Positions 11,216 through 49,215 of a stretch of DNA of 64,000 nt are shown in pieces. The position numbers and the translations under genes are program-made. Origin of the DNA: Cordylochernes scorpioides (lineage: Eukaryota; Arthropoda; Arachnida; Pseudoscorpiones; Chernetidae); assembly GCA_030710605.1 (NCBI GenBank), contig CP092880.1, forward strand, positions 10,118,016 to 10,182,015, read 5' to 3'. Under the pieces are notes generated by a model that did not search any database, was not told the origin of the DNA, and saw only the letters and a list, made by a program, of their open reading frames with translations. Position 1 is the first letter of the stretch; the number at the start of each line of letters is the position of its first letter.

Positions 11216-11420
11216 AGGTTCAGCATGCACCACGCTGACGAGGACGGTAGTCTGAAACGCATATGTGGTTGTCTTTTTATTTATCAAGAAATGGGTTGGC
11301 CAAATATTATGGTCTCAATCTACGTTTAGTTGATTTTTATTCCGCTAGATGGAGCTTAGAGCCCTATAATGCTCATGTAAGTGGTCAAAATATGTCCATT
11401 TTATGTTTAATATCACTCCC
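11215..11420 (+). repeat. Repeat R, diverged copy with hammerhead
   Basis: Shares with other R copies the block around TTATCAAGAAATGGGTTGGC (11280), TTTAGTTGATTTTTATTCCG (11324) and CTAGATGG. The hammerhead-like part is at 11229-11269. This is the most diverged copy. Confidence 0.6.
11229..11269 (+). ncRNA. Hammerhead-like ribozyme motif in repeat R
   Basis: Core CTGACGA at 11235-11241. Helix II GGAC/GTCT closes around GGTA, followed by GAAA. The outer ACCAC pairs with GTGGT to form helix I. Helix III is very short and imperfect (C opposite A). Both catalytic boxes are intact although the surrounding repeat has diverged. Activity is not known. Confidence 0.55.
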
Positions 11421-11994
11421 TGATCACTTATATTTTCTTGCTTTTCACACACATGTTCGTGTATATTATATAATAATTTTTACTTAACGTATGAGCGCTA
11501 ATATAAAATCGCAAAACTACCTAACAAAAATTTATAATTTTAAGCAAATAAATTATGCTACGATAAAGTCAATAATTTTCTTTTTGACCATAATATCATC
11601 ATTAAAGTTTTGTTGACAAATTTCCTCTGAGAAAAATACACCTTTTAAAATTCGGTTAGCCAAGTTCGAAATTTTATACCCTTTTTTCTGAGATTTTTTT
11701 ACAATATCTTCACTAAATATATGATGATACTCTGGAATATTTTAATATTGCAACTTTTTTTCGGTATATGCTTGGCAAATAAAAAAGGGGAAGTGTCAGT
11801 CGAAGAAGAGAAATATGGTGTCAAATACGCTTCACGTTGTGAAGGTACGTAAAAGTTCAATGTATGGATGTTAAAATCGAGATTCCTTTTGAATCGTCAA
11901 CAGTATAGAAGCAGTGAACAAATAATAGGATTAAAAATACCGCTTTATGTATTTAAATAAACCGCCATAAGATTACTGTACATACGCCATATTT

Positions 11995-12085
11995 GTGGAA
12001 TAACATATACTATATATATGTTAATAACATATACTAATGTATATGTAAATAACATATACTATATATAATATATGGAATATAATCT
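11995..12085. repeat. AT-rich tandem repeat
   Basis: Three near-copies of AATAACATATACTATATAT in a row. Confidence 0.7.
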
Positions 12086-12187
12086 TTTAAAGAGCTAGTT
12101 GTTTAAAAGTAATACATAGCCTTTCTGCTTATACACACCAATGCATGCCATTTAAAAAAAAAACCTTGGACAGTAGAATTGCTTATA

Positions 12188-12364
12188 CAGTTAAACCTGT
12201 CTATAGCGCCCTCTCTAAATAGCGCCTCCCTCTCTATAGCGCCCGATTTTAAATACGTAGTACGATGCGATTTACATTAAAAGTGACCTGTCTATAGCAC
12301 TCCCTCTTTATAACACCCTATTTTGGTGAGTCCCAAGAGGGGGCGCTATAGACAGGTTTAACTG
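12188..12364. mobile_element. Short TIR element of Tigger/pogo type
   Basis: Inverted ends CAGTTAAACCTGTCTATAGC and its complement at 12345-12364 flank 177 bp. TA dinucleotides at 12186-12187 and 12365-12366 are the target duplication. No coding capacity. CAGT termini with TA duplication are typical of the pogo/Tigger branch of Tc1/mariner. Confidence 0.8.
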
Positions 12365-12405
12365 TATATATATTTTTTTTTGAAAATAGAGCAATCCATA
12401 TTTAA

Positions 12406-12602
12406 TTCATTAGATAATAAAAAGGCATATATTGGATTTAATAAAAGATTTATTTTGCCAATATTTCAGCTGGCTGAACGCCAACCTTTATCGAGGCATT
12501 ACATGATGTAATGCCTCGATAAAGGTTGGCGTTCAGCCAGCTGAAATATTGGCAATATAAATCTTTTATTAAATCCAATATATGCCTTTTTATTATCTAA
12601 TA
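12406..12602. repeat. Near-perfect palindrome (about 98-bp arms, no spacer)
   Basis: The left arm from ATTAGATAATAAAAAGGC matches the complement of the right arm ending GCCTTTTTATTATCTAAT. The centre is GCATTACAT-G-ATGTAATGC near 12508, so the spacer is one base. Each arm contains a hairpin (GGTTGGC...GCCAGCT) followed by GAAA. The same arrangement is seen in the Penelope-like ends elsewhere in the window. Confidence 0.85.
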
Positions 12603-12699
12603 TATATATTTACCTAAAAAATAATAATATAAACCTATCTTACTCATTACATTTCTTTTTTTTTTTCTACATTATTTTTAGTTAAATATATATTAAAAA

Positions 12700-13075
12700 A
12701 TAAAAAGCATATCCTGACCAGGAGCATATGTGCATTTTAGATGGCAGAGTGCCATCTAGTGGAACAGAAATCAACTAAACATTGATTTAGCCTGTTCCCT
12801 GATATTACCAATTTCTTGGCTTCTCAAGAAGCCTATGGGACCAAAAATATTTTTGGTTACAATGGTACAGCCTGCTCCACGCTGACGAGCGCCAACAGCG
12901 CAAAACGCGTTCGTGGATGGCTTTTCTTGATTTATCAAGAAAATGGGTTGACCAAATATCAAGGAACAGGCTAAATCAATGTTTAGTTGATTTCTGTTCC
13001 ACTAGATGGCGCTCTGCCATTTAAAAAGCACATGCGCTCCTGGTCAGGATATTCCTTCTTTATTTTTAATATCAA
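12700..13075. repeat. Repeat R, inverted pair
   Basis: A plus-strand R copy (about 12840-13070) is preceded by an inverted copy of its own 3' part (about 12706-12805). The arms read CATATCCTGACCAGGAGCA and its complement TGCTCCTGGTCAGGATAT. Arms are about 105 bp. The plus copy carries the hammerhead-like motif at 12876-12917. Confidence 0.75.
12876..12917 (+). ncRNA. Hammerhead-like ribozyme motif in repeat R
   Basis: Helix I TCCACG (12876-12881) pairs perfectly with CGTGGA (12912-12917). CTGACGA is at 12882-12888. Helix II is GCGC-CAACA-GCGC. The next box is AAAA instead of GAAA, so the catalytic G12 is changed. CGCGTT follows, with the expected cleavage position after GTT. The short helix III ACGCGT is self-complementary. 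Probably inactive because of the G12 change. Confidence 0.65.
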
Positions 13076-13284
13076 CACCTGAGCTTTTTATTTTTTTCTA
13101 TTATTTTTTCACACACATATATATATATTATGAAAAAGAAAAAGGCATCTCCTTATCCAGCAATTGAAAGTTGCTGATGGCTTGCACCATCTATCGGAAT
13201 AAATATCAACTATTCTCATTAATTTTTAATTAGTTCCGAATTGGCCAAATACCTTTCTTCTTTCTTATCTCCACTCAATCATAT

Positions 13285-13860
13285 TAAGGTATCATAAGAC
13301 TTAAGTCTGGAAATCAAAGACTGTTGTTCTCTTGGGAGGACAGAACCGGTGTTTGCCTCTCCTGCTCTGTACCAGTCATGTGCAGCATTAGATTTCCATT
13401 CCTGCAGGCATTGGGCTTTGATGGTACGGAGAAGGTCTCTTTTGTCTAGTTGGGTGGTAGATTCCCTGGCCTCAGGGTGGCCAAGAGCTCCAGACTTTGC
13501 CAGAGAGTCTGCCAGCTCATTTCCAGGAATTCCAACGTGAGCTGGAAGCCATTGCACTGTGACCGAGCTATTGGCTGGGAGTCGGTTTACAGACTTAGCG
13601 ATGTTCTTAAGAAGAGGTTCTTGACTGGAGAAGGTTCTTGACTGTTCTTGAGTCAGAGTAGATTATTATTTTGCTTGGCGAGTTGATGTTGATGTCTTTT
13701 AGAGCCGTATCTATTGCAGAGAGTTCCGATTTATAAACTGAAAGGTGTCTAGGGTGGGAGAGGGAGATTTTTCCAGGATCTTATCTTTGTAGATAGCAAT
13801 TCCACTGCCAGACAGTCCAGTTTCAAGTTGGCTACCGTCAGTGTAAATTGTGATGTCGAA
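13285..13860 (-). pseudogene. LINE RNase H domain (broken)
   Basis: IYTDGSQLETGLSGSGIAIY (about 13845-13790) holds the first RNase H aspartate. Further on, VQWLPAHVGIPGNELADSLA (about 13560-13505) is the last RNase H block, with the catalytic His/Asp region. The parts are in different frames with a small insertion between them near 13640. It ends about 50 bases before the 3' tail shared with repeat E. Confidence 0.85.
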
Positions 13861-14296
13861 GAGGGAGCTATTTTCCTCAATGATTTGGAGGCCAAGAGCT
13901 TTAAGTAATTCTGGCTGAGTTTCATGTTTGTGGGGATTGGCTAGTAGATGAGGAAAACAGATGAGTCTGTTGCGAGTTCTGTGTGGGGGATAGGAAGTTC
14001 TGTGTTTGGGATTAATTGGGAAGTCTAAAAGATTAGAGTTGTGAGCCAGGTTGAGAGGAGTGGGGCGTTTTAATCTTTGGTTTGGGACCCAATTTCTAAT
14101 AAATTTTACTGTAAGATGTTCTTTTGGAGAGTTAATCTTTTTGGTTATAAATTTTGAAAAGCAGATTTTTCTCCTTAGGTGCAGGGGAAGAAGGTTGGAT
14201 TCGAGTTCAGCAATGCGATTTGGGCAGGATCCTCGAAGCCCGCTGATGATTTTCGCTGTGCTTGCTTGGATTCTGTCTATTTTGGATAGGTTAGTT

Positions 14297-15088
14297 TTAC
14301 TTGCATTGATCCAGGCTGGTGTAGCATATTCCAAAATAGGTCTTACGAGTGCAAGGTACGTTGTAAGATATTGGCATTTGCACCCCAGTTTGAGCTTGAT
14401 ATATTTTTTTCAGGAATCTGTGTCTATTTTCAGCTTTGTTTATCATGGTGTCGATATGTTTTTCAAAAGTGAGAGCAGGATCAAGTGTGAGACCAAGATA
14501 TCTTGGGGAATCTAAATATTGGATTATTGAGTTGTTCAATGAAATATTTGGGGTCCAGTGGCGAAGGTGGTTGTTGATGGTGAAGAAGCCGATTTCAGAT
14601 TTGCTGATGTTGATGGATAATTTCAGTTTCTGAGTTACCTTTTGCAGATTTTTCGTGGCTTTATTCAGAGAGTGTTCTGCATCGGAGAGGTTGTTTTTGG
14701 AGACCCAGGGGATTATATCATCTGCGTAAAGGGCAATTTTAGCTGGTGGTTTGATGAAAGTGTGTACATCATTTAGGTAAATATTGAAGAGAATAGGGCT
14801 TAGGATTGACCCTTGGGGTAGACCTTGGTAAATTAGGGTGGTTTTTGATTTGATGTTGTTGAAATTAACCTGTATGGTGCGTTTGGATAGAAAATTGCTG
14901 ATCCAACTCAGCCTACTTCCCTCTATTCCAAGTTCATTGAGTTTGAGAATTAGCTTTTCCTTCCAGACTCTGTTGAAGTCTTGGGAAAGGTCGATGAAGG
15001 TTGCTATAGTAGATTTTGTAGGTTTATGATGAAAGCTGTCCTGGATTTGTTGAACAAAGTAAATGATTGAATCCTCTGTGCTTGCCAA
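14297..15088 (-). pseudogene. LINE reverse transcriptase fragment
   Basis: Open frame of about 263 codons with RT landmarks in order: ATFIDLSQDFNRVW (first catalytic Asp region), QGLPQGSILSPILFNIYL, the catalytic YADD in IALYADDIIPWVS, and RYLGLTLD (thumb). The fingers domain and endonuclease are missing upstream. The frame is lost after about 14297, and the next part continues in another frame (SKTNLSKIDRIQASTAKIISG at about 14300-14245). Confidence 0.85.
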
Positions 15089-15393
15089 ATACCCATTCTT
15101 TATTAATCATGAAAAGCTAACCACGTACATGTTTTGGGCTATTTTTTATTTGGATTTGGTCTTATTGCCTTGTGTCATTCAATACATTAAAATTTCTACA
15201 GTAATTCTATTTGATCTATATGAGCTTGAAACTTCAGATCAATGAATAAGCTACAATTACAGTTTTGAAAAAGTTCAGACACAAAAGCCAACAACCTGTG
15301 TACCATGATTACAGGCAATGGCACTCATCATTAAGAGTAACTTCGATTTCATAAAGGATTTCAAGACGAGTTCTTAAATTAACTGAATTTTCC

Positions 15394-15719
15394 GGGGGGT
15401 CGGTGGAAGGCTGGTTAAACCGTTTGGTTTACGACCACTACGACCTGGGTTCGATCCCCGCATTGGACACTTTTTTCTGTTCAAAAAAAAAAAAAAAAAA
15501 TGCTCCAATGGCCCCCCGATTCTTGCAAAAGTCCAACCCCACCAGCGAGTGCAAGTAACCAAACGGGGCTCTGGCACATTTGTAAGTGCAAAGTCGAACT
15601 GCTTTCACATGTGTAGACATGTGGTGCGCTTACAGTAAAAAGCAGTCGCTAACTACCCACCATGATTATCATGGCCTGTACCACGTGTACTAGGGATAAG
15701 CAAAAAAAAAAAAAAAAAA
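15394..15719 (+). mobile_element. tRNA-headed SINE, full length
   Basis: Head begins GGGGGGTCGGTGGAAGGCTG and contains a perfect pol III B box GGTTCGATCC. The body follows (TGCTCCAATGGCC, AGTGCAAGTAACC, TACCACGTGTACTAGGGAT) and an A tail. The 10-bp target duplication TGAATTTTCC lies at 15384-15393 and 15721-15730. This copy defines the family, which I call SINE-S. Confidence 0.9.
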
Positions 15720-15870
15720 TTGAATTTTCCTAAACAGATGTTTAAGCTGGACATCATAAAAGTGCAGAAAGATGGTATTCATGTGAAAAAACTAGTATTT
15801 TTCATTGATATAAATTTGTATGCTCTGTGCAACAAAGATCAAATGAATGCATTTTTTAAAAGGAGAGGTA

Positions 15871-16048
15871 CAGTAAAACCTCCCTTTAGCGGACACCTCG
15901 CTAGAGGACACCTCTCCATAAAGGACAGTTTTTATTTACAAAATTACCATTTTTACAATTTAGAAACTTTCTGGTAAGAGGACACCTCTCCCTAAAGGAC
16001 ACCTTGGCTCTGTAATTAGGTGTTGTCCTTTACAGGGAGGTTCTACTG
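15871..16048. mobile_element. TIR element M1 (about 178 bp)
   Basis: Ends CAGTAAAACCTCCCTTTAGC and the complement-like CAGGGAGGTTCTACTG, flanked by TA. The interior has repeated GGACACCTCTCC motifs. Other M1 copies lie at 17533, 23871, 31223, 47724 and 50934. Confidence 0.8.
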
Positions 16049-16049
16049 T

Positions 16050-16960
16050 ATCTCTTTTTTTGCACATGTATACTATCCTCCCACACTTTTATACAATATA
16101 GTAAAATTCTCTTTAATTCAACGCAACCATCCTCTGCTGGTATTACCTGTGGAATTCTAGTTGGTTAAATTAGATAAATCATATTTCACTGCCCAACATA
16201 TACTAAATTGTATTGGAAAGGACAAGGGATCCCTGTACAGAGAACCAAGAATAGTTGTTGAACTTCCTTATGAGCACGACCTCCAAGATTTTGTCTAATT
16301 TAGACTAAAAGGATAAGTAAAATATATATATATATATGTTATAAAAACAAATGAGATTTGATTTTCTGCTTGATTTTTGATCATGTTGAGGATTATGGTA
16401 ATGTAATGCAGTCGTTAAATCTTGAAAGTATGATAATAAAAATAATTTTGATCAGTAATTTAATTGAACTAAAGGAATATATAAAATAACATAAATTGAT
16501 AAAAGTAATGCCTGGCTTAAGGCGAGTAGAATAAGGAAAACAAAATATTATTTACATAATGTACAAAAGTTTTGAGCCTGCCTTCGGGGAAGAACAACGA
16601 GTTTTTATAGGGGAAGAGTGACCTCTGGCGGTCGATTTGATAGAGTATTTGAATCTAATAATATAATTTTAAAATAAAATAATATATTTATATAACATAT
16701 ATATTTCACTGGATTTAAAAAGTAAATTAAGGAAAGTTTTGATATATAGTCAGTTGAATACTATACTGTGTACATTCGAATCTCATTATACCAATATCAC
16801 TTCGGGCCATGATTTTTACATTGTGTGATATACCTCTGTTAAACCATTTGGGACTCAAAATATAGGGTTATAAAATTATTTTAGAATCAATTACAGTTAT
16901 TATAAAGGATCCAGTTATAGCAAGATATGACTGAGTACATAATATATCAATTATTCAAAA
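16050..16960. other. AT-rich DNA with faint TIR remnants
   Basis: A degenerate CTTTAATTCAACGCAACC stretch near 16112 resembles Tigger-type ends, and CATTCGAATCTCATTATACC near 16774 may be another. Nothing else was recognised. Confidence 0.35.
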
Positions 16961-17250
16961 TAAAGGGTCGGTGGAAGGCTGGTTAAACCGTTTGGTTTTC
17001 GACCACTAGGACCCGGGTTCGATTCCCACATTGGACACTTTTTAAAAAAAAAAAATGCTCTAATGGCCCCCGATTCTTGCAAAAGTCCAACCCCACCAGC
17101 GAGTGCAAGTAACCAAATGGGGCTCTGGCACATTTGTAAGTGCAAAGTCGAACTGCTTTTCACTTGTGTAGACATGTAGTGCGCTTACAGTAAAAGCAGT
17201 CGCTAACTACCCACCATGATTATCATGGCCTGTACCACGTGTACTAGGGA

Positions 17251-17464
17251 TGGTTACAGCCTTCTCCACGCTGATGAGCGCCAACATCGCTAAACGCGTT
17301 CGTGGATGGCTTTTCTTGATTTATCAAAAAATTGGGTTGGCCAAATATCTCGGAGTAAGCTAAATAAACGTTTAGTTTATTTTTACTCCACTAGATGGCG
17401 CTCTGCCATCTAAAAAGCACATGTGCTTGTAGTCTGGAGATGCCTTCTTTATTTTTAATATCTA
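17251..17464 (+). mobile_element. Repeat R, single copy with 15-bp target duplication
   Basis: A 214-bp insertion starting TGGTTACAGCC and ending TTTATTTTTAATATCTA. The flanking 15-bp duplication shows staggered-cut, retroposon-like integration. It defines one insertion unit of R. The hammerhead-like motif starts 14 bases inside the left end. Confidence 0.82.
17265..17306 (+). ncRNA. Hammerhead-like ribozyme motif in repeat R
   Basis: Helix I TCCACG (17265-17270) with CGTGGA (17301-17306). CTGATGA is at 17271-17277. Helix II is GCG/CGC with one C/T mismatch at the loop side. The box is TAAA rather than GAAA, so G12 is altered. Helix III segment CGCGTT as in the 12.9-kb copy. Confidence 0.6.
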
Positions 17465-17532
17465 CACGTGTACTAGGGATAAGCAAAAAAATAATAATAA
17501 TAAAAAAATAAAAGTTATGGTAAATTCTAATA

Positions 17533-17707
17533 GAGTATAACTTTCCTGTAAAAGACACCTAATTACAGAGCCAAAGTGTTCTTTAGGGAGAGGTGTTCTC
17601 TTACCAGAGAGCTGCTAAATTGTAAAAATGGTAACTTTGCAAATGAAAACGGTCTTTTGTGGAGAGGTGTCTGCTAGTGGGGTGTCCGCTAAAGGGAAGT
17701 TCTACTG
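17533..17707. mobile_element. TIR element M1, inverted
   Basis: Opposite orientation to the 15.9-kb copy; the right end CTAAAGGGAAGTTCTACTG is followed by TA. The left end has decayed. Confidence 0.7.
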
Positions 17708-17981
17708 TATTTGTGTCTACAATAGATATTTCTTAAAATAGAAGTGCTTCTACTTGATCTGTCTTAAACAATTTTTCTTTAATCTTCTCAAACATTCCTT
17801 CTCTGTTAAGCAAATAATTTTGCAGGACCACAAATATTATTTTCTTTCCATATAGGATTTTTTGTGGGAGAATCCTAAAGTTGTGCTCAGTAACAAAACG
17901 ACAACTGTAACAATGCTCTAGGTGAGGTAGGTTAGTTTCAGATGGGTTAATTTAGATTAGGTTAGTTTAAATATAGAACAC

Positions 17982-18291: not shown

Positions 18292-18329
18292 ATGGAACTA
18301 TTTTCATGGCAAATCAGGCACACAGTTCA

Positions 18330-19304: not shown

Positions 19305-19561
19305 CAACATGAAATGTAGAACGACGTTTGACAATTTTCCCTCAAATGTTTCTTTTGAACGAAAAATCGTAATTTATTTTAAGGAGAAATAATGACTATT
19401 TCTATCCTTAGGGATGAAGTATGAAAGGATGAATTGTGAAGAATAATGATAAATGGAAAAATAAAAGTGTCCAGGGATGGGAATCGAACCCACAGTGTTC
19501 CGCTTACCGGGCAGATGCCATGTTCACTAGGCTACCCTGGACATATTTTTCCGTTCATAAA
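19305..19561 (-). repeat. Repeat T: tRNA-like sequence with AT-rich body
   Basis: Minus-oriented unit: tRNA-like head (19470-19541), then a conserved body (CACTTTTATTTTTCC, TTCACAATTCATCCTTTCAT, AAATAATGACTATT). Related copies lie at 20620-20866 (+), 34470-34795 (-), 55485-55715 (+) and 59185-59415 (+). The right side is interrupted by a Helitron at 19562. Confidence 0.75.
19470..19541 (-). tRNA. tRNA-like sequence, anticodon GGT, within repeat T
   Basis: 72 nt that fold as a full cloverleaf: acceptor TCCAGGG/CCCTGGA (7 of 7), D stem GCC/GGC, anticodon stem TCTGC/GCGGA, T stem GTGGG/CCCAT with loop TTCGATT. The anticodon loop CCGGTAA gives anticodon GGT (Thr) but has C instead of U at position 33. 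GGT is an unusual anticodon for eukaryotic nuclear Thr tRNAs. It is repeat-borne, so probably a tRNA-derived promoter rather than a translating tRNA. A TTTTATTTTT stretch follows 3 bases downstream and could terminate pol III. Confidence 0.55.
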
Positions 19562-20595
19562 TCCCTATATATATAAAAGTCAGTGTATGTATGTGTGTTT
19601 GTTCCTATGTCGGCTTTACACGTCCACAATACGTAACTAATCTGACTGAAATTTTAACAGTATATAGAGTAGAATCTGGAAAAACTTATAGTGAAAATTT
19701 CAGGTCTCTATCCCAAATATTCGAGTTATTTGCAAATTGCGTTGCAAATTTACCTTTTCGCTCGCAAGCAGCGCCTCTAGCGGTGAAGATGGGAAGTAAT
19801 ATCAGCTGACCTAATGTACATGTAAAGCATGTTTTGACAGGACATAGAGAAAAATCTGGAAAAGATATTTATCGGATTTTTATCCAATAAAAAATAAAAT
19901 TGACAGGTTCTGGGCAAAATTAGTTTTTTTTTAGTCAGAAAATGATGACAATATTGCTGTATCACGTTTCTTCTTCTTCTTCTTCTTTCTTATCTCCACA
20001 CTGGGTGAAGTAGAATGCGTCTGCCTTTGTCATTAAGACTGGGAGCACTACTCAGTGGCAGGTCGACTTAGCTCCAAAAGAAATGGCCGCCTCTGACATG
20101 AGGAACAGACGCCATGTGCAGCCGCTCCTAACATGGAGTACAAACGCTGCTCATCCTTTATACCCGGATCAGGAGCCCTTACAGGGTACTATCAGCCGGG
20201 CCAGCTGAACCCAGGTTTTTTAGTGAGCTTGTTACTTCTCCCCCTCCTCCTTTTTCATCCGGGCTTGGGACCGGCAAAGGTGGAGTTTGTATCATGTTTG
20301 ATTATCAGATACAAAATTATATCGGGAAAAATTCCAAAAAGCTGAGACCACGGGTGAAGCCAGTTCATTTTTAGTGTGCAGGAACAAAATTCTAACAGAA
20401 AAACATTCATTCGAGCAGAAGACACAAAGCCAGATCATCTCTTTATAAAAATATCGCTTCTCTGACACAAAGTTTGGAGCGGGACGTTTCACAAGAGTGA
20501 CATCCACGGCGCCAATTTATAATTATAATGAATAGTATTTGAATAAAAACATTTAATCAGGTAAAACCTGGGCGTTGCCCGGGTCATTCGGCTAG
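19562..20595 (+). mobile_element. Helitron, non-autonomous
   Basis: The 5' end TCCCTATATATATAAAAGTC is typical of animal Helitrons. The 3' end has the hairpin ACCTGGGCGTTGCCCGGGT shortly before terminal CTAG, and the element lies between A and T. It interrupts repeat T. No Rep/helicase coding. It carries an internal repeat E insertion (19970-20288). Confidence 0.82.
19970..20288 (-). mobile_element. Repeat E copy inside the Helitron
   Basis: E in minus orientation: 3' tail TTCTTTCTTATCTCCAC at the left, 5' end CTTGGGACCGGCAAAGG at the right. The target duplication GTATCACGTTT / GTATCATGTTT (one mismatch) is at 19959-19969 and 20289-20299. Confidence 0.82.
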
Positions 20596-21499: not shown

Positions 21500-21847
21500 T
21501 TACATAAATGTGTATTATAGCATAGCAATATAGCATGGGTTGTTATCACAGCCTTCCTTATCTTATCTCTGGCCATGGTGGAAATGTGGAAAGACCCCAC
21601 TTCCTGAGACTGTAGCCACTTGCTTAGCTCTCCACTCCAGTATATTCTCAAATCTAAATGGAACGGGAGGAGCATGCAGTAGAAACATAATGTTCCCTTT
21701 CACTATCAAAAGTTTTGCTGATTTTTATATTTATTTACAGTATAGTATTTTTTACAGTATAACCACTTTCCAGAATGGTTGCAAGGTTTTCCCACTATGT
21801 ACTAAGTGAAATTCTCAACCTGCAACCCCAAAACACATTATTGACTG

Positions 21848-22115
21848 TTAAAAATAAAAAAAGGCATATCCCAACCAGGAGCACATGTGCTTTTCAGAAG
21901 GCAGCGCCATCTGGTGGAAAAGAAATCAACTAAACATTAATTTAGCCTGTTCCCTGATATTTGGCCAACCCAATTTCTTGATAAATCAAGAGAAGCCATC
22001 CATGAACACGTTTCACGCTGTTGGCACTCGTCAGCGTGGAGTAGGCTGTACCACTGCGACCAAAAAGATTTTTCCGTCCCAAAGGCTTCTTGAGAAACCA
22101 AGAAATGAGTGTTTA
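21848..22115 (-). repeat. Repeat R, minus copy
   Basis: Starts with GGCATATCCCAACCAGGAGC (complement of the R 3' end) and continues through the hammerhead motif and the ACCACTGCGACCAAAAAG block to about 22115. Confidence 0.75.
21999..22040 (-). ncRNA. Hammerhead-like ribozyme motif, core intact
   Basis: On the minus strand: helix I TCCACG pairs with CATGGA (one C/A mismatch), then CTGACGA, helix II GTGC-CAACA-GCGT (G-U tolerant), GAAA fully intact, then CGTGTT with a two-pair helix III and the expected cut after GTT. Among the five R copies it is the best candidate for a self-cleaving RNA. Confidence 0.65.
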
Positions 22116-22116
22116 A

Positions 22117-22258
22117 GGCCAAACTTACATAAATTATTGACTGTATTGACTCATCCATTGATGAGCTCTACTCATCCCCGGCAGACACCATCAACAAGCT
22201 CTACAAGCTTGATGCCCTAATATGATTTGAGTGGAGATAAGAAAGAAGAAGACAGTAT
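22117..22258 (+). repeat. Repeat E / LINE 3' tail variant
   Basis: Ends GCCCTAATATGATTTGAGTG then GAGATAAGAAAGAAGAAG, the E tail. The upstream part (GACACCATCAACAAGCTCTA) matches the variant at 54575-54634. Confidence 0.6.
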
Positions 22259-29130: not shown

Positions 29131-30028
29131 GAGGGCTGTTCAATAAGTAAGGTAAAAAATAATAAAGCTTGTTTTTTGAAAAGGTTTTATTTTTCAACAT
29201 AGTCCTCATTCAACTCCACACTCGTTGTTCTGCGTTGTTCTGATTTTTTATCCCTTCGAAAAAATATGGTGTTGGAGGTCCTCAAAGTATCTATTTACAT
29301 TGTCGATAACCTCTTCATTTGTAAAGAAAATGTCCTCCCTCAACTCCGCCTTTGCCGGTCCCAAGCCTGGATGAAAAAGGAGGAGGAGAGCAGTAAAAAG
29401 CTCGCTAAAAAACCTGGGCTCAGCTGGCCCGGCTGATAGTACCCTGTAAGGGTTCCTAATCCAGGGATACAGGATCAGCAGCGTTTGTACTCCATGTTAG
29501 GAGCGGCTGCACATGGCGTCTGTTCATGTCAGACGCGGCCATTTCTTTTGGAGTGAAGTCGGCCTGCCACTGAGTAGTGCTCCCGGTCCTACTTCACCCA
29601 GTCATGGTGGTTGTCAAACAGACACCATCAAGGGTCACAACTTGATACCCTAATATGATTGAGTGGAGATAATAAAGAAGATGTCCTCCCTCCAAGTCAT
29701 TATTTAGATTTTGAAGCTGAAGAAGTCACACAGGGCCAAATCTGGGGAATAAGGTGGATGAAAGACCAATTGGAAGCTTATCTCAAACATTTTGTCAACT
29801 GCTATATTCGACCTATGAAGTGGAGCATTATCATGGAGAAAAAGCACGAGTGAGCCAATCTAGGACGTTTGGTACGCAATTCTTCCTTTAATCGATCCAG
29901 AAATGTTGCATAATACTCTCCTGATATTGTTTTTCCATTTTCAAGTAGTCAATTAGAATTATTCCTTGGGAATCCCAAAAGACAGTGGAAATCACCTTTC
30001 TGGCTGGAATATTACTAGGAGGGGAGAG
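29131..30028 (-). pseudogene. mariner element remnant with repeat E insertion
   Basis: The end GAGGGCTGTTCAATAAGTAA at 29131 is a mariner inverted terminus. Minus-strand translation shows KVISTVFWDSQGIILIDYL at about 30005-29950, a catalytic HDNA-like block near 29840 and a C-terminal FFTNEEVIDNVNRYFEDL at about 29340-29285. Stops and frameshifts throughout. Repeat E (29342-29680) splits it. Confidence 0.8.
29342..29680 (+). mobile_element. Repeat E, near full-length copy
   Basis: 339 bp from AACTCCGCCTTTGCCGGTCC to the tail AGTGGAGATAATAAAGAAG, flanked by ATGTCCTCCCTC at 29330-29341 and 29681-29692. The duplication and A-rich tail indicate LINE-type retroposition. No coding frame. It is shared with segment B (45998-46367), so it is older than the segment duplication. 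Confidence 0.85.
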
Positions 30029-34469: not shown

Positions 34470-34795
34470 GACGACACTTGAAGTTACACCGCATGAGTTT
34501 CTTTTAAACGAAAAATCAAAATTTTTTTATTTCAAGGTAAAATATTGACTATTTTTAACCCTTTTTGGATGAGGTATGAAAAGGTGAATTATGAAGAGTA
34601 ATGACGAACGGAAAAATAAAAGTGTCCAGGGATGGGAATCGAACCCACAATGTTCCGCTTACCGGGCAGATGCCATGTCCACTAGGCTACCCTGGACGTA
34701 TTTTTCCGTTCGTAAATGATACATAAAGTAACTTATAATACAATATACTACACTGCGGCCTGTGATTGTAAAACGACACTTGAAGTTACACCGCA
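34470..34795 (-). repeat. Repeat T copy
   Basis: Minus unit with body, intact tRNA-like head (34625-34696) and the linker TACACTGCGGCCTGTGATTG. ACGACACTTGAAGTTACACC occurs near both ends in the same orientation (34471 and 34773). Confidence 0.72.
34625..34696 (-). tRNA. tRNA-like sequence, anticodon GGT, second copy
   Basis: Same cloverleaf as 19470-19541. The few differences fall in loops and the variable region and all stems stay paired. C33 and anticodon GGT are kept. A TTTTATTTTT stretch follows downstream. Repeat-borne. Confidence 0.55.
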
Positions 34796-43021: not shown

Positions 43022-43544
43022 CAGTCAAATCTCAACTACAACAATGGAACAATCCTTGGATACCATTTCTTTACTTTTTTTTTATCTAAATAATTTTAGA
43101 GTTACATTATTATGTGTGTGGAAAAACAAAAAATATAGAAGAAATAGACTTACTCAAAACTTTTTTTTATTTGTAAGACATTACAGAGGAGGGAAGACAT
43201 GTTTTTTGAGAATAGATCAGCTGGAATGTAGGATTTCATTGTACAAAAACAGAGAGACATCTATAAAGGAATTCTTTAAAAGATCTTCAGAATTATTTTT
43301 TAAAATAAAATTAAAATAATTTTCTTTTTATTTTCCATATTTATTTACTTTTCAACTGCTACTATTCAATTAGATTAAACTTTTATCTATATGTTATGTA
43401 CAGTATAATCATTTATATGTTTTGAAAATATGTATTAATGCCATTTTGTCCTTGACACTGAAAGTTAATCATGAAATAAAAAATAAATATAAAAAAGTAC
43501 AAATGGTTTCAATTATTATTATAGCTATTTAAGAGTGAATTCGA

Positions 43545-43856
43545 GGGTAGGTGGAAGGATGGTCTAAACTGTTGGTTTTCAACCGCTACGACCCAGGTTC
43601 GATTCCCGCATTGGGCACTTTTATGTTTAAAAAAAAAAATGCTCCAATGGCCCCCGATTCTTGCAAAAGTCCAACCCCACCAGCGAGTGCAAGTAACCAA
43701 ACGGGGCTCAAGCACATTTGTAAGTGCAAAGTCTAACTGCTTTTCACATGTGTAGACAATGTGGTGCACTTACAGTAAAAGCAGTGGCCTACTTCTACCC
43801 ACCATGATTATCATGGCCTGTACCACGTGTAATAGGGATAAGCAAAAAAAAAAAAA
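43545..43856 (+). mobile_element. SINE-S copy
   Basis: Head with GGTTCGATTCC B box near 43596, body and A tail. The A tail is directly followed by a DDE-type element. Confidence 0.85.
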
Positions 43857-44481
43857 AGAGTTAATTCATCACTAAATTCGTCACTTTTAAAAATGTGTTC
43901 GTCGCCGTTAAAAGAGTGCTACCTCGGCCACTCTTTTTGTTGAATTTTTACGTGAGCTTGATGAAATTGTAGCCACGCGATATAGATTTAATGTTTCTAT
44001 ATGGATAATACAAGAGCACACACATCCGCAGAAACATCTGTTAGTCTGCTAAGAAGCAGCGTGAAGTTTTTGTCACCATATTCATATATGCTGAATCCAA
44101 TTGAATTTTCATTTAGCAAAATTAAAACATTGGTCGCTGCTTCATCGACATCACGTTAGGTTATCACTGATACAATCAGTAGAATTACATCAGGAGACTG
44201 TGAAGGATGGTTTACTTGTATTCGCAAAAATTGTTTCCTGGCCACACAAGAACACCAGTTTATCCAGTAAAATCTGTTTATAATTTATTTCGTGGTTATT
44301 TGCCCCTATATTAGTGTTTTGGACTTAATGTCAAATGTATTTAATTAATCTTTATGATATTGTCTTTTTGATTTTTACAAATAACAATCTTATTTTTAAA
44401 GGCGAAGAACTAATTTTAAAAAGTGACGAATTTATTTTTATGAGGGATGAATTTATTTTTAAAAGTGATGAATTCACTCTT
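43857..44481 (+). mobile_element. IS630/Tc1-like DDE element remnant
   Basis: Inverted ends AAGAGTTAATTCATCAC and GTGATGAATTCACTCTT bound 625 bp, with further GTGACGAATTTA repeats. Translation at about 44070-44270 gives FLSPYSYMLNPIEFSFSKIK and GDCEGWFTCIRKNC, like the last catalytic block of DDE_3-type transposases, where the Glu of NPIE is the third acidic residue. Upstream catalytic blocks are not recognisable, so it is an internally deleted copy. Confidence 0.6.
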
Positions 44482-44516
44482 AAAATGCTATATAATTAAT
44501 TTAAAAAGAATACAAT

Positions 44517-44635
44517 ACTTTAGTGAGTTAGATGAGTAGCTAATCATCTGACTAACTTTAATTCAACACTTCCTTTAATTCAACACACAGCTTTGATCCT
44601 TTGGGGTGTTGAATTAAAGAGGTTCGACTCTAAGT
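44517..44635. repeat. Tigger-type terminal fragment
   Basis: AACACTTCCTTTAATTCAAC and GGGGTGTTGAATTAAAGAGG, as at 38085. In A only its last part remains (26580-26630). Confidence 0.6.
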
Positions 44636-44689
44636 GAAATCCTTTATCTTGGAAGCATCTTAAAAGAAGAAAGAATATTTTTTTTTTAA

Positions 44690-45450
44690 AGAAAGAATGA
44701 AATTAAAGGATGCCTAAATGTTTTGTTTGATCATATTTCCTATAAGGATGTCAAGCTTTGGTAATGAACAAATGACAGGGAGTCTAAAATTAATTATTTT
44801 GAAATCTGTGTTATTAAAGAAAAATCCTCAAGATCAAATGAACAGATACAAACAAAGAAGTTTAGAGAATAACCTTCTAAATGAAGTGATCAAAAGGAAA
44901 TGGAAGTTTTCAGGACATATACTCTGGACATAATCAACTAATGCCCATACTGGAGGGATGCACCTTGAAGAATGAAAGGAGAGGTAGATCTTAGAAATAA
45001 TTGGCTTAATAATCTTTTTTTTTTTCTCTTATCCTTAGTATATGTAATACAGGCCATAATAATCATGGTAGGTAGAAATAGGCAATTGCTTTTTACTGTA
45101 ATTGCACCACATGTCTACACATGTGAAAAGCAGTTCAACTTTGCACTTATAAATGTGCCAGAGCCCTGTTTTGTTACTTGCACTTGCTGGTGGGGTTGGA
45201 CTTTTGCAAGAATCAGGGGCACTTGAGCATTTTTTTAATCTGAAAAAAGTGCCCAATGAGGGAATTGAACCTGGGTCATAGTGGCGAAAACCAACGGTTC
45301 AGACCATCCTTCCACCAACCCCTGACTTAATAATGTAATAGAATGATAGGAATTTAGAAGAAATGAAGAGATTTGCTCAGAACAAGGTGAAATGATGTTT
45401 CATGATGACCAACCACCATATTGATAACTAAACATGATGAAACTATGAAG
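44690..45450 (+). pseudogene. LINE ORF2 C-terminus (RTE-like), partner of 26690-27407
   Basis: EVIKRKWKFSGHILW is readable at about 44885-44930. A complete minus SINE-S (45016-45325), flanked by CTTAATAAT, splits it. The end lies near 45450. Confidence 0.55.
45016..45325 (-). mobile_element. SINE-S copy
   Basis: T run with TATCCTTAGTATATG at left, head complement ATCCTTCCACCAACCCC at right. Confidence 0.82.
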
Positions 45451-45487
45451 ACCAAGTAAAAAGTAGACAAATATTTTATCCTTTGGA

Positions 45488-45612
45488 ATCTTCTTCTTCT
45501 TTCTTATATCCACTCAATCATATTAGGGTATCTAGCTTGTAGATCTTGAGATTTGACAACCATCATGACTAGATGAAGTAGAATGTGTCTGCCTTTGTCA
45601 TTAAGACTGGGA
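45488..45612 (-). mobile_element. Repeat E, 5'-truncated
   Basis: Tail TTCTTCTTTCTTATATCC at left. Stops after AAGACTGGGAGCAC. ATCCTTTGGA / ATCCTTTAGA flank it. Segment A has the uninterrupted site near 28955. Confidence 0.75.
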
Positions 45613-45789
45613 GCACATCCTTTAGAATAAAATGTAAGGGTAACATGTTGAATACTAAAGAACATTATGCAAACCACCCAGCTGTTCTGTCTGCAAGAAA
45701 ATAATCCATTGTCCATATTGTTCCAACAATTCCATGGAGGATTCAGAAAGACAGATGGTTGTGGGGGCTTACATATTCAATAATGAATT

Positions 45790-46708
45790 TTGAGGGCTGT
45801 TCAATAAGTAAGGTAAAAGATAAAGAAAGCTTGTTTTTTGAGAAGGTTTTATTTTTCAACATAGTCCTCATTCAACTCCACACTCCTGCGTTGTTCTAAT
45901 TTTTTATCCCCTCTAAAAAATATGGTGTTGGAGGTCCTCAAAGTATCTATTTACATTGTTGATAACCTCTTCATTTGTGAAGAAAATGTCCTCCCTCAAC
46001 TCTGCCTTTGCCGGTCCCAAGCCTGGATGAAAAAGGAGGAGGGGGAGCAGTAACAAGCTTGCTAAAAAACCTGAGTTCAGCAGGCCCGGCTGATAGTATC
46101 CTGTAAGGGCTCCTGATCCAGGGATACAGGATGAGCAGTGTTTGTACTCCCATGTTAGGAGCGGCTGCACATGGAGTCTGTTCCTCATGTCAGAGGCGGC
46201 CATTTCTTTTGGAGCTAAGTCGGCCTGCCACTGAGTAGTGCTCCCAGTCTTAATGACAAAGGCAGACGTATTCTACTTCAACCAGTCATGGTGGTTGTCA
46301 AACAGACACAAACAAGGGTCACAACTTGATATCCTAATATGATTGAGTGGAGATAATAAAGAAGAAGATGTCCTCCCTCCAAGTCATTATTTAGATTTTG
46401 AAGCCGAAGAAGTCACACAGGGCCAAATAAGGTGGATGAAAGACCAATTGGAAGCTTATCTCAAACATTTTGTCAACTGCTATATTCGACCTATGAAGTG
46501 GAGCATTATCATGGAGAAAAAGCACGAGTGAGCCAATCTAAGACGTTTGGCATGCAATTCTTCCTTTAATCAATCCAGAAATGTTGCATAATACTCTCCT
46601 GATATTGTTTTTCCATTTTCAAGTAGTCAATTAGAATTATTCCTTGTGGGAATCCCAAAAGACAGTGGAAATCACCTTTCTGGCTGGAATATTACTAGGA
46701 GGGGAGAG
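45790..46708 (-). pseudogene. mariner remnant with repeat E, partner of 29131-30028
   Basis: Terminus GAGGGCTGTTCAATAAGTAA near 45790 and FFTNEEVINNVNRYFEDLQ at about 45985-45925. Repeat E (45998-46367, flanked by ATGTCCTCCCTC) splits it. Confidence 0.8.
45998..46367 (+). mobile_element. Repeat E, longest copy
   Basis: Starts AACTCTGCCTTTGCCGGTCC and ends GAGATAATAAAGAAGAAG. It includes GACAAAGGCAGACGTATTCT, which the segment A copy lacks. Confidence 0.85.
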
Positions 46709-46907
46709 GTGTTGTGTCTTTGCATATTTGCTCTTTGCATATTTGTTCTTTGTTGTAGCATAATTTACATAGCTTAACTTATTTGTGCTATAAATAGGAC
46801 GTAAGGATTAAGTTGAGGAGTCCCGCCCAGTGTTAAGAGTCCAGTAGTCTTGTTACTTTAAATGTCTTTTTCTACTGTAGTCTTAGCTTGGCAATAAAGA
46901 ATATTTG
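46709..46907 (+). repeat. Solo LTR-like piece, partner of 30030-30210
   Basis: TGTTGTGTCTTTGC to AATAAAGAATATTTG with CTATAAATAGGACG. It carries about 20 extra bases (GTCCCGCCCAGTGTTAAGAG) relative to segment A. Confidence 0.6.
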
Positions 46908-47233
46908 TTTTCTTCTTTCTTATCTCCACTCAATCATATTAGGGTACTGAGTGAAGTAGAATGCATCTGTCTTTGTCATTAAGACTGGGAGCACTACTCA
47001 GTGGCAGGCCGACTTAGCTCCAAAAGAAATGGCTGCCTCTGACATGAGGAACAGACGCCATGTACAGCTGCTCCTAACATGGAGTACAAACGCTGCTCAT
47101 CCTGTATCCCTGGATTAGGAGCCCTTACAGGGTACTATCAGCCGGGCCAGCTGAGCCCAGGTTTTTTACCGAGCTTGTTATTGCTCCCCCTCCTCCTTTT
47201 TCATCTGGGCTTGGGACCGGCAAAGGCGGAGTT
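46908..47233 (-). mobile_element. Repeat E, partner of 30211-30514
   Basis: Shares with the A copy the odd AGGGTACTGAGTGAAG junction, so it is the same insertion. It reaches further to CAAAGGCGGAGTT, where homology with A ends and the GGGAGGGTTCACC-family repeat begins. Confidence 0.82.
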
Positions 47234-47234
47234 G

Positions 47235-47475
47235 TATGTAATTCTGCTGTCCTCAAAGATTATATCCATAGTTCATCTAAAATACCCATTCCAAGAGTCT
47301 AACATCAGTATCACTATAAAAGGAAGATCGAAAATGCAATATAACAGCGGTATGGGTAGATTAAACTGACGAAACCGTTGGGAGGGTTCACCACTGATGA
47401 GCCAGGCCCTCCCATTATTTTTTCCATTGCAATAAGGGCAGTAGAAATTGTTTATTAAAAAAAAAAAGAATCATA
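47235..47475. repeat. Dispersed repeat (GGGAGGGTTCACC family)
   Basis: GTATGTAATTCTGCTGTCCT to GGCCCTCCCATTATTTTTTC, parallel to 36835-37065. The following 47475-47720 is unassigned. Confidence 0.65.
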
Positions 47476-47723
47476 CGCGGCTATAATAGTTTCAAATATC
47501 ACAATCATAGACAAAACTTGGACTACACAAAGGAAGTGGAAAGTCTTTGCCGGTCATCTATTTTTTTTATGGAGAAAGAAGCAATTTTATTCACACTTGG
47601 TTATCTCTTGTCTTCAATAAAGGTCACTGTAATATCTTTCAAGAGTTTTTGTTTAAATACCAATTTTAATGCTAAAAGGTACGACTTCCTTAAGTTTGGT
47701 CCATGAGTATAAATAGATAAATA

Positions 47724-48027
47724 CAGTAGAACACCTCTCTCTCTAAAGGACACTTAGTTGCAGATCAAATATGTCCTTCAGAGAGATGTGTATTCTAATG
47801 CTGGAGAGTAGCTAATTGTTAAAATTTATCATTTTTTTCTATGATTTTTTTTTCTTCTTATGTCTGATGGTAACAATGCTGTTACAGAAATGTCACACAC
47901 TGATTATTTGGATTAGGTCTTATTTTCTTGTATCTATAATCCAAATTGTGCTTTATCATTTTATGAAAATTTTTCTTTGTAGAGAGGTTTCCTCTAGCAG
48001 GTGTCTCTTCTAATGGAGGCTCTACTG
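47724..48027. mobile_element. TIR element M1 with a Penelope-end insertion
   Basis: CAGTAGAACACCTCTCTC at left, AATGGAGGCTCTACTG at right. About 47855-47968 is Penelope-end sequence (GTCTGATGGTAACAATGC, then GAAATGTCACACACTG). Confidence 0.7.
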
Positions 48028-48194
48028 TATATAAAGGTGCAAAGCTTACTGACTGTTGACACATAGAGGACATTGTGATTTCTGTGATAGAGATGCATGG
48101 AGACATCTGAGGCTTTTCATTGGACACCACAACAACACCATGGAAAGATTATCTCTTTGATTGGTTGCCCCACTGTCCAATTATAATCACATTC

Positions 48195-48575
48195 AAGAAT
48201 GCAGCGTTTGTACTCCATGTTGGGAGCGGCTGCACATGACGTCTGTTCCCCATGTCAGAGGCGGCCATTTCTCTTCTTCTTCCTTATCTCCACTCAATCA
48301 TATTAGGGTATCAAGTTGTGACCCTTGATGGTGTCTGTTTGACAACCATCATGACTGGGTGAAGTATAATGCGTTTGCCTTTGTCATTTAAACTGGGAGC
48401 ACTACTCAGTGGCAGGCCGACTTAGCTCCAAAAGAAATGGCCGCCTCTGACATTCTTTTGGAGCTAAGTCGGCCTGCCACTGAGTAGTGCTCCTAGTCTT
48501 AATGACAAAGGCAGACGCATTCTACTTCAGCCAGTCATGATGGTTGTCGAGTCTAGAAAGAAGAAGACATACAAG
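48195..48575. repeat. Repeat E fragments as an inverted pair
   Basis: A minus E piece (48275-48464) is directly followed by a plus piece (48462-48560). They meet at CTCTGACATTCTTTTGGAGC. A short plus fragment (48200-48270) precedes them. Confidence 0.7.
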
Positions 48576-48615
48576 AGTACAGTCTACTGTCCAGCCCAAA
48601 TGACCCTTGTGCTAA

Positions 48616-48844
48616 GTCTCTGCCTTGAAAGAGCTTGAACTCCATTGTCGTCGCTGTATGTTGCCCACTTCTTCCATTGGTGATGATACACAGCCTGGTT
48701 TACAATACCTGAGTGGTGCAGTGTGCAAGCTGGTGGTACGTGAACTAGAGAACACACTCACTGAGACTGGAAAGTCCCATGATGTAGTGGTGACCGGATA
48801 TTCCCTGGATGCAGCACCGAAGAAAAAGACCAAATATGTCCATT
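48616..48844 (+). CDS. Possible host exon of an unknown protein
   Basis: About 74 open codons bounded by a pyrimidine-rich TCTCTGCCTTGAAAG (possible acceptor) and TTCGTAAGTC (strong donor-like GTAAGT at 48846). In-frame stops lie just upstream of the acceptor and at the donor itself. The peptide includes GLQYLSGAVCKLVVRELE, HDVVVTGYSLDAAPKKKTK and a CRRC pair. It is polar, non-repetitive and unlike the transposon proteins here, and has no other copy in the window. No family recognised. It could also be an old transposon fragment. Confidence 0.35.
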
Positions 48845-48920
48845 CGTAAGTCTTTGACCTACATATAACTTGTAGTATTTTAAATTTATGGCAGTGTATG
48901 ATTATTAACTTGCTTTATAT

Positions 48921-49215
48921 GTTTACAAATGTGTTTCAGGCTGTCGACCCTCATCAGCGTAGTGCAGGTTGTACTTCTAGGAGCCAAAATTTGGTTCTAG
49001 AGGCTTCTTTATAAATCAAAAATGGGAATTTAAGGCCCAATTTGCATAAATACGCTGTTCATGTGAAAAAAAATAGAAAAAAGGTAAGGTGTTGATATTA
49101 AAAACAAAAAAGGCATATCCTGACCAGCTCACATGAGTATATTCGATGGCAGAGCGCCTTCTAGTGGAAAAAAAATCATCTAAACATTAATTTAACTTAT
49201 TCCGTGATATTTAAA
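48921..49215 (-). repeat. Repeat R, minus copy
   Basis: Hammerhead-like part at 48923-48965, the GCCAAAATTTGGTTC and GGCTTCTTTATAAATC blocks, and a second inverted R end (GGCATATCCTGACCAGC) at about 49110-49215. Confidence 0.65.
48923..48965 (-). ncRNA. Hammerhead-like ribozyme motif in repeat R
   Basis: Minus strand: CTGATGA (48951-48957 complement), helix II GGG/CCT, intact GAAA (48934-48937 complement), and helix I TACG with TGTA. Helix III is weak. Both core boxes are intact. Confidence 0.5.

What the first reader, a model, noticed from the sequence alone, without database searches (positions are those of the whole stretch)
11229..48965. Type-I hammerhead-like ribozyme fold kept in five copies of a short dispersed repeat (R)
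Seen directly: at 11229, 12876, 17265 (plus) and 21999, 48923 (minus), R contains CTGAYGA, a hairpin, (G/N)AAA, a 2-bp helix III segment and an outer helix I. Helix II differs between copies by paired changes (GCGC/GCGC, GTGC/GCGT, GGAC/GTCT, GGG/CCT), so pairing rather than sequence is kept. Helix I (TCCACG/CGTGGA) is perfect in two copies. The self-complementary helix III (ACGCGT) fits minimal hammerheads that work as dimers. Hammerheads are known from Penelope-like elements and retrozymes (Cervera and de la Pena); assigning R to that group is inference.
Basis: partly seen in the sequence, partly recalled or inferred. Interest (0 to 1): 0.85.

Follow-up and report, generated by a model that had tools for sequence, protein, structure and literature searches.

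The report
Hammerhead retrozyme with Penelope-type insertion marks
The repeat is a short retrotransposon carrying a minimal self-cleaving hammerhead RNA, and the way its copies sit in the DNA suggests that it is copied, probably from circular RNA, by Penelope-type machinery, a link that has been proposed for such elements.

Summary
R is real. The five window copies belong to a family of ~335-350 bp repeats in this 2.62 Gb genome (eukaryotic, by inference). The family holds a minimal type I hammerhead (1-2 bp palindromic helix III): 6,319 exact 40-nt subfamily A ribozymes and 13,278 exact 29-nt subfamily B cores; reversed controls 0. None of the five window copies is intact by my strict rule; none reaches an Rfam gathering score.

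The insertions explain the element. R3 and R4 have perfect 15- and 11-bp target duplications. Young insertions include arrays of near-identical units (L068: 5 cores, 4 complete units, 0-2 differences per 338 nt). Many are divergent pairs, 3' ends outward. Copies end at one of two sites, E1 or E2, about 28-51 nt apart: 12 of 12 readable pairs, chosen without regard to ends, have one of each (by eye). E1 lies in the loop of a covarying 7-bp stem. RT+GIY-YIG Penelope elements of this genome end alike, as does the published Anolis element (PMC11167929).

I read R as a metazoan retrozyme moved by Penelope-type machinery from circular (less likely multimeric) RNA. Cleavage, RNA and the partner are unproven.

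The parts
11213..11447 (+). R1, old copy akin to subfamily B (ends approximate); hammerhead-like 11227-11269; tail-like sequence near its 3' end, by eye
12689..12805 (-). R2 inverted arm, 5'-truncated, outer 3' end of type E1 at 12689
12806..13111 (+). R2 forward arm; ends with the tail (E2) and then AT-rich flank
12874..12917 (+). R2 hammerhead motif, 74.3 bits, GAA core mutated to AAA
13042..13084 (+). R2 stem-loop around E1: GGTCAGG (13042-13048) with CCTGAGC (decayed CCTGACC, 13078-13084); E1-equivalent after 13071
17236..17250 (+). Left copy of the 15-bp target duplication CACGTGTACTAGGGA of R3; uninterrupted paralogous sites at 15682, 35987 (+) and 21217 (-)
17251..17464 (+). R3, 5'-truncated single copy ending within about 4 nt of E1; hammerhead motif 17263-17306 (TAA in place of GAA)
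17465..17479 (+). Right copy of the 15-bp target duplication of R3
21848..22132 (-). R4, 5'-truncated single copy ending at E1; hammerhead motif 21999-22042 (core intact, one helix I mismatch); 11-bp target duplication CAGTCAATAAT at 22133-22143 and 21837-21847
48922..49212 (-). R5, old fragment spanning the junction of two tandem units (3' half, then 5' half up to the hammerhead 48922-48965)

Best explanation
R is a non-autonomous retrotransposon of the metazoan retrozyme kind: a ~335-350 nt unit without a long ORF and with one minimal type I hammerhead. Its RNA serves as template for Penelope-type (RT plus GIY-YIG) machinery. Proposed cycle: tandem copies are transcribed; hammerheads, acting as dimers through the palindromic ACGCGU helix III, cut the RNA into units; a host ligase closes them into circles (inferred; the published in-vitro step used RtcB). 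The enzyme cuts DNA, often AT-rich, with an 11-15 bp stagger and starts reverse transcription inside the RNA at two neighbouring sites, E1 (in the loop of a 7-bp stem) and E2 (28-51 nt further), one on each DNA strand. Going round the circle gives head-to-tail near-identical units; two strands extended give divergent arms with 3' ends outward. Shown from DNA: tandem identity in young loci, divergent arms, E1/E2, stem covariation, target duplications, similar anatomy in Penelope elements. Inferred: cleavage, circles, the identity of the enzyme.
For: Target duplications: R3 15 bp with uninterrupted paralogous sites in the same window, R4 11 bp; L070 13-15, L083 11-12, L082 12 bp, the last in AT-rich DNA. 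Arrays: L068 has 5 cores at exact 338-bp spacing, its 4 complete units 0-2 differences apart. Units of one locus, both arms included, are on average more alike than between loci over 165 nt: A 96.3 vs 88.9% (22 segments, 11 loci), B 99.2 vs 96.9% (25 segments, 9 loci), 0 of 2,000 label shuffles each. Close pairs (<1 kb) among the first 100 listed exact hits: A 9 divergent, 0 convergent, 1 tandem; B 5, 1, 10. Ends: of 14 divergent pairs fetched without regard to ends, 12 have both ends readable and all 12 have one E1 and one E2, nine cleanly and three (L075, L077, L079) with altered ends; in the earlier, ranking-biased set 11 of 13. Stem around E1: 407 of 420 cells paired in 60 copies; pair 2 GC 32/AT 19, pair 4 CG 37/AT 20 (two of the seven pairs were fixed by the search pattern). 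Penelope elements here: RVT_1 and GIY-YIG in one ORF of L061, a minimal hammerhead, E1 in the loop of CTGGCCG/CGGCCAG, a 34-nt tail, one E1 and one E2 arm in 4 of 4 pairs. PMC11167929 (abstract and main text read) reports two internal RT start sites, a stem-loop, a 30-40 bp optional tail, AT-rich targets and extension of both strands.
Against: No RNA data and no cleavage test. The hammerhead lacks a stable helix III; the 44-nt consensus folds best into another hairpin and no better than shuffles (z -0.47). No Rfam hit above a curated cut-off. R's tail (A 28-51, median 45, 38 cases; B 49-51, 15 cases) is mostly longer than the published 30-40 bp and the 34 nt of L061, and E1 lies about 15 nt from the stem in B against 23 in A. 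The autonomous partner is not identified: apart from R insertions in L043 and L058, no R-like sequence beyond T-rich matches in 31 GIY-YIG loci, which hold only part of each element and are few of 146 matches and 17,015 candidates. Two pairs (L010, L030) have E2 on both arms; one listed pair is convergent (L084). Within-locus likeness is uneven: between-locus identity reaches 100% in both subfamilies, one L086 unit is no closer to its siblings than to others, and in a first version with segments crossing junctions the nearest neighbour was a sibling in only 12 of 23 (A) and 19 of 26 (B); in mostly older loci arms exceed all other loci only in L009, L018 and L058 of 13. Identical units could come from multimeric RNA of a homogeneous array. 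PMC11167929 saw no difference in start site between strands, and its hammerhead was not needed for insertion in vitro.
Confidence: 0.7

Rival explanations
1. Same element and enzyme, but the template is uncut multimeric RNA read from an existing tandem array, not a circle; the hammerhead is a passenger or acts later.
For: In the Anolis element hammerhead mutants insert normally in vitro and unprocessed RNA is suggested as the main substrate (PMC11167929). Tandem arrays exist to be transcribed. L026 units 2 and 3 share a mutated hammerhead yet form an array.
Against: L068 would need an RNA of more than five units to escape cleavage at five exact hammerhead cores. L068, L069 and L070 each have units 98.8-100% alike, in L069 and L070 on both arms, which asks for one unit-length or homogeneous source per insertion.
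Confidence: 0.3
2. R is a SINE moved by a LINE, with inverted arms made by twin priming.
For: Target duplications of 11-15 bp also fit LINE insertion; an RT ORF of LINE-like look is in the window.
Against: No poly-A or LINE-like 3' end was seen in the copies read; both arms of a pair start at an RNA 3' site (E1 and E2), while LINE twin priming (recalled) puts only one arm at the RNA 3' end; tandem near-identical units; similar anatomy in RT+GIY-YIG elements here.
Confidence: 0.08
3. R is a non-autonomous DNA transposon (MITE) or satellite, and the hammerhead likeness is chance.
For: Some loci, such as 12689-13111, look palindromic; no Rfam hit above cut-off.
Against: Inner ends of the arms vary while outer ends fall at two different recurrent sites, so there are no terminal inverted repeats; the chance expectation of the descriptor is 0.003 per 64 kb, thousands of copies keep the core exactly, and helix II is compensated between subfamilies.
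Confidence: 0.03

Closest known systems
Metazoan non-LTR retrozymes (Cervera and de la Pena 2020, PMC7229834: abstract, parts 1-2 of 3 of the Results, and Discussion read)
   Same: 150-450 bp tandem repeats with one type I hammerhead; high copy number (126,247 motifs reported in axolotl); short helix III in amphibians, said there to work as a dimer; target duplications longer than 4 bp when present; co-occurrence with Penelope elements.
   Different: Divergent arms and two recurrent 3' ends with a covarying stem-loop are not described in what I read; there Penelope elements are a 'strong candidate' for mobilisation. Circular RNA was shown there, not here.
Penelope-like elements, e.g. Poseidon of Anolis (PMC11167929, abstract and both parts of the main text read), and the RT+GIY-YIG elements of this genome
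   Same: Minimal type I hammerhead, tandem or partial-tandem arrangement, AT-rich targets, two internal RT start sites near a stem-loop, optional tail, both strands extended.
   Different: R has no ORF over 49 codons (L068 units); its tail is mostly longer (median 45 against 30-40); its sequence is unlike the Penelope ends seen here apart from short motifs; E1 and E2 fall one per strand in R pairs.
Axolotl retrozymes and amphibian satellite repeats (as described in PMC7229834)
   Same: Helix III with one pair and a palindromic tetraloop; ~330-350 bp unit; very high copy number.
   Different: Loop 1-loop 2 contacts kept there were not tested in R; the sequences were not compared.
Retrozymes of plants (PMC4918200; title and abstract start in the search listing only)
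   Same: Hammerhead, non-autonomous, circular RNA life style.
   Different: Plant ones have LTRs and type III hammerheads (from PMC7229834); R has a type I hammerhead and no LTR was seen.

Membership tests
Hammerhead ribozyme, type I | Core CUGANGA ... GAA with helices I, II, III and N-U-H before the cut, helix I open | tested here: met
   Met by the family consensus and by 13 of 46 segments (38 scored, 8 of other length not scored); met by 0 of 5 window copies; 6,319 exact 40-nt copies.
Hammerhead ribozyme, type I | Score above an Rfam hammerhead cut-off | tested here: not met
   Searches (window; L068, L070, L003, L061): best HH9 26.5 bits against 52. Claim kept as 'minimal hammerhead', not as an Rfam family member.
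Hammerhead ribozyme, type I | Self-cleavage after NUH | not testable with these tools
   No wet work; imposing helices I and II on four units with an exact ribozyme costs 1.4-4.7 kcal/mol.
Metazoan retrozyme | Unit of about 150-450 bp with a type I hammerhead, found in tandem | tested here: met
   Units of 335-350 bp in L026, L029, L068, L069, L070, L086 and others.
Metazoan retrozyme | Linear and circular RNA of unit length in tissue | not testable with these tools
   No RNA data; only indirect support from unit-identical arrays.
Metazoan retrozyme | Target duplications longer than 4 bp when present | tested here: met
   11-15 bp duplications in five loci; not clear in L069, not found in L078.
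Penelope-like element (autonomous) | ORF with RT and GIY-YIG | tested here: not met
   No reading frame over 49 codons in two L068 units, six frames; R is therefore not an autonomous Penelope element itself.
Mobilised by Penelope-type machinery | Two neighbouring RT start sites with a tail between them, at a stem-loop, both strands extended | tested here: met
   12 of 12 readable pairs, stem, similar in 4 of 4 Penelope pairs; but the tail is mostly longer than 30-40 nt.
Mobilised by Penelope-type machinery | Shared 3' end sequence with an autonomous partner | tested here: inconclusive
   None among 31 loci examined; most candidates not examined.

The most novel reading that the evidence does not exclude
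A dimeric Penelope-type reverse transcriptase grips one circular hammerhead RNA at the E1/E2 stem-loop and copies it simultaneously from both strands of a staggered cut, E1 on one strand and E2 on the other, so that one circle yields two divergent head-to-tail arrays. R insertions would then be DNA records of circular-RNA retrotransposition in an animal-type genome and would name the enzyme class that moves metazoan retrozymes. L073, where R is fused to the 3' end of a second family (S), would be a template switch by the same enzyme.
Probability: 0.45. Interest if true: 0.87.

Novelty: new variant of a known kind. Interest (0 to 1): 0.72.

Why it matters
Which enzyme moves metazoan retrozymes, and whether their circular RNAs are retrotransposition templates, are put forward as models, not settled, in the papers read (PMC7229834, passages of PMC7761336). 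This family holds thousands of intact ribozymes and young insertions with target duplications, two recurrent start sites and unit-identical arrays, so both questions can be tested by counting in one genome and by one in-vitro assay. The one-start-site-per-strand pattern is also a specific, testable statement about how Penelope-type enzymes work.

Tried and rejected
Rfam Hammerhead_1 in the whole genome: no hit, but only 74 of 285,298 candidates were scored and no control genome rang; uninformative. A 23-29 bp match between R and Penelope loci was T-rich low complexity and was dropped. MITE reading dropped once inner ends proved variable and outer ends proved to be E1 or E2. Arms starting at the hammerhead cut: only L029 unit 3 and L014 were seen to begin within about 2 nt of it; other inner ends vary, so no claim is made. 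Twin arms from one RNA: above all other loci in 3 of 13 pairs of the first set, clearer in young ones, a first version with segments crossing junctions, was replaced by 94 and is told above. Spider origin, my first guess from the window's ORFs, is not supported: no Spidroin_N hit (no control rang). The S stem-loop is weak (1,333 of 5,000 shuffles). A motif TGGCCRAARTATC shared by R and the Penelope elements is, by a hand estimate outside any call, expected about 0.4 times by chance and is not used. Genome-wide pattern counts of E1 and E2 did not complete and were given up. Classification of ends as E1 or E2 was by eye; L075's plus tail is shortened and was called E2; L077's minus tail is altered inside and was called E2 from its 3' half; L079's plus end is slightly changed and was called E1; L073 and L085 were left out of the 12 because one end was not readable as R; L014, L043 and a second pair in L002 were left out of the 13. 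Confidence was lowered from 0.72 to 0.70 after one search showed tails longer than the published range.
Full report
Where it lies. The window is G000:C18:10118016-10182015 of a genome of 2.62 Gb in 24 contigs. Three of four window ORFs scanned have reverse transcriptase domains (ORFs). I make no claim about the species.

Observation. A covariance model from 29 family segments, which include these copies, finds these five in the window at 43-74 bits; the only other hit is 17.7 bits. Rfam gives no hammerhead at its cut-offs; Hammerhead_HH9 reaches 23.0 and 21.0 bits (cut-off 52) in two copies, 26.5 bits in nine subfamily B copies of L068 and L070, and 19.6 in L003.

Chance and integrity. A strict descriptor finds no copy in the window; Markov resampling gives 17 hits in 6,061 windows. 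Of 46 ribozyme segments from 29 genome loci and the window, 38 were scored and 8 of other length were not; 13 are intact and 26 have an intact core. In the window none is intact. The consensus, however, is a complete minimal hammerhead: TCCACG-CUGACGA-GCGC(CAACA)GCGC-GAA-ACGCGU-U-CGUGGA. Its inner 40-mer occurs exactly 3,110 + 3,209 times in the genome (reversed control 0). A second subfamily, B, with helix II GGGC/GCCC, occurs as an exact 29-nt core 6,691 + 6,587 times (control 0), and all of the first 100 listed carry the compensating C. The window copies at 11227 and 48922 look like old relatives of B. Covariation inside the mixed alignment is modest: 91.6% of cells paired and score 0.189 against 0.131 (0 of 500 shuffles), but 4 pairs with changes on both sides against 3.0 expected (180 of 500).

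Helix III. ACGCGU leaves one or two pairs in a monomer and could form six between two molecules. PMC7229834 (Results parts 1-2) describes a one-pair helix III in the axolotl, where dimers cleave far better than monomers. That R acts as a dimer is inference. The 44-nt consensus alone prefers another hairpin (z -0.47); in four units with an exact ribozyme, imposing helices I and II costs 1.4-4.7 kcal/mol over the best fold of -93 to -107.

The unit. R is not a lone motif. Copies stand head to tail at about 335-350 bp (L026, L029). The clearest case is L068: five exact cores at 338-bp spacing, the four complete units differing by 0-2 nt in each comparison, the array ending at E2 in AT repeats. 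L069 and L070 have units on both strands. Over 165 nt downstream of the core, units of one locus are 96.3% (A) and 99.2% (B) identical on average, against 88.9% and 96.9% between loci, 0 of 2,000 label shuffles reaching this. The pattern is uneven: between-locus identity reaches 100%, and one L086 unit is not closer to its siblings. A first version with segments running over junctions gave a sibling as nearest neighbour in 12 of 23 (A) and 19 of 26 (B). In the first set of loci, arms of one pair exceed every other locus in 3 of 13 pairs (L009, L018, L058). Two neighbouring L068 units have no reading frame over 49 codons.

Insertions. R3 (17251-17464) is flanked by CACGTGTACTAGGGA on both sides, and the same repeat without R stands at 15682, 35987 and 21217 of the window. 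R4 (21848-22132) is flanked by CAGTCAATAAT. L070, L083 and L082 have shared words of 13-15, 11-12 and 12 bp at their ends, the last AT-rich; L069 is unclear and L078 shows none.

Two ends. Copies end at one of two places: E1, after GGATATGCCTTYTTTATTTTTAATA, or E2, after a further tail TCAACACCTGACC...TATTGTTTTTTCA, and then usually AT-rich DNA. The distance from E1 to the end of TTTTTCA is 28-51 nt (median 45, 38 cases, tandem units included) in A and 49-51 (15 cases) in B. Many insertions are two arms in opposite directions, 3' ends outward. Because the first loci were ranked by similarity to a query holding part of the tail, I repeated the test on all 19 close groups among the first 100 listed exact matches of each subfamily. 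These hold 14 divergent pairs, one convergent pair and four tandem-only groups. Both ends are readable in 12 divergent pairs; all 12 have one E1 and one E2, nine cleanly and three (L075, L077, L079) with altered ends. In the first set 11 of 13 did, the other two having E2 twice.

The stem-loop. E1 lies in a loop closed by seven pairs: GGTCAGG/CCTGACC in A and GATAAGG/CCTTATC in B. In 60 copies from 37 sources 407 of 420 cells pair, and two pairs change on both sides between A and B. The search pattern fixed the two inner pairs, so those do not count, and the change between A and B may be one event. A perfect stem of this length at this place occurs in 20 of 5,000 shuffles for one A copy. E1 lies about 23 nt from the stem in A and about 15 in B.

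Similar anatomy in Penelope elements. GIY-YIG matches number 146 (150 of 17,015 candidates scored). L061 has one ORF with RVT_1 and GIY-YIG, inverted arms of 2.4 kb at 98.9% identity, a minimal hammerhead with palindromic ACGU helix III, then E1 in the loop of CTGGCCG/CGGCCAG (89 of 5,000 shuffles), then a 34-nt tail to E2. In four of four such pairs (L032, L034, L041, L061) one arm ends at or near E1 and the other at E2 (by eye). The published Anolis element starts reverse transcription at two adjacent internal sites, in a stem-loop, with the sequence between them forming the 30-40 bp tail of genomic copies, cuts AT-rich DNA and extends both strands (PMC11167929, main text). R resembles it in these points, with a mostly longer tail. 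R is not itself an autonomous Penelope element.

Reading. R is a retrozyme whose insertions carry Penelope-type marks. The most economical template is a circle: it gives identical tandem units, lets one molecule serve both arms, and avoids asking an RNA of more than five hammerheads to stay whole. Multimeric RNA remains possible, and the Anolis work, in which hammerhead mutants inserted normally, favours caution. The enzyme itself is inferred from anatomy; no Penelope element sharing R's end was found among 31 loci examined.

Known and new. PMC7229834 (Discussion) and PMC7761336 (passages) name Penelope elements as candidates to move metazoan retrozymes. In the listings (titles and abstract starts) of seven searches of the held library I saw none reporting insertion evidence for it; two key papers (PMC5785218, PMC4209133) are not held, so priority cannot be claimed.

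Noticed in passing
window 20238-20292 (-), 45993-46044 (+), 29337-29391 (+), 47184-47238 (-), weaker 50269-50327 (+): Twister-P1-like ribozymes, E 1e-6 to 1e-4 (the last 0.1), all below the gathering score 67.2; the first four were read and are followed by similar sequence of about 110 bp. PMC7761336 mentions twister conserved at 5' ends of RTE retrotransposons.
   Followed up: partly
window about 12378-12602, and L062-L067, L019, L025, L041: A palindromic element (S) made of two short divergent arms that also seem to end at two sites about 35 nt apart in AT-rich DNA; 64 matches from 40 scored of 1,267 first-look candidates, up to 98% identical; no hammerhead core seen by eye.
   Followed up: partly
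L073 150-300: An R arm is fused to the 5' part of S at GCACATGTGC, as if one reverse transcription had switched between the two RNAs; a single case.
   Followed up: no
L031 1402-3241: A GIY-YIG domain lies near the N-terminus of its ORF (residues 34-114 of 476), followed in another frame by sequence that I read by eye as RT-like and did not scan; unlike L061, where GIY-YIG is C-terminal. Recalled as the permuted Naiad type of Penelope element.
   Followed up: no
window 49324-49434: A long near-perfect hairpin (miRNA-family matches below cut-off on both strands), perhaps a palindromic transposon.
   Followed up: no
window 15625, 17180, 21276, 31531, 35931, 43765 and others: A dispersed repeat with an A-rich end, about 75 bp of it seen, one copy of which is the target of R3.
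   Followed up: partly
window 19469-19541 and 34624-34696 (-): Two nearly identical tRNA-like sequences above the Rfam cut-off, perhaps tRNA-derived repeats.
   Followed up: no
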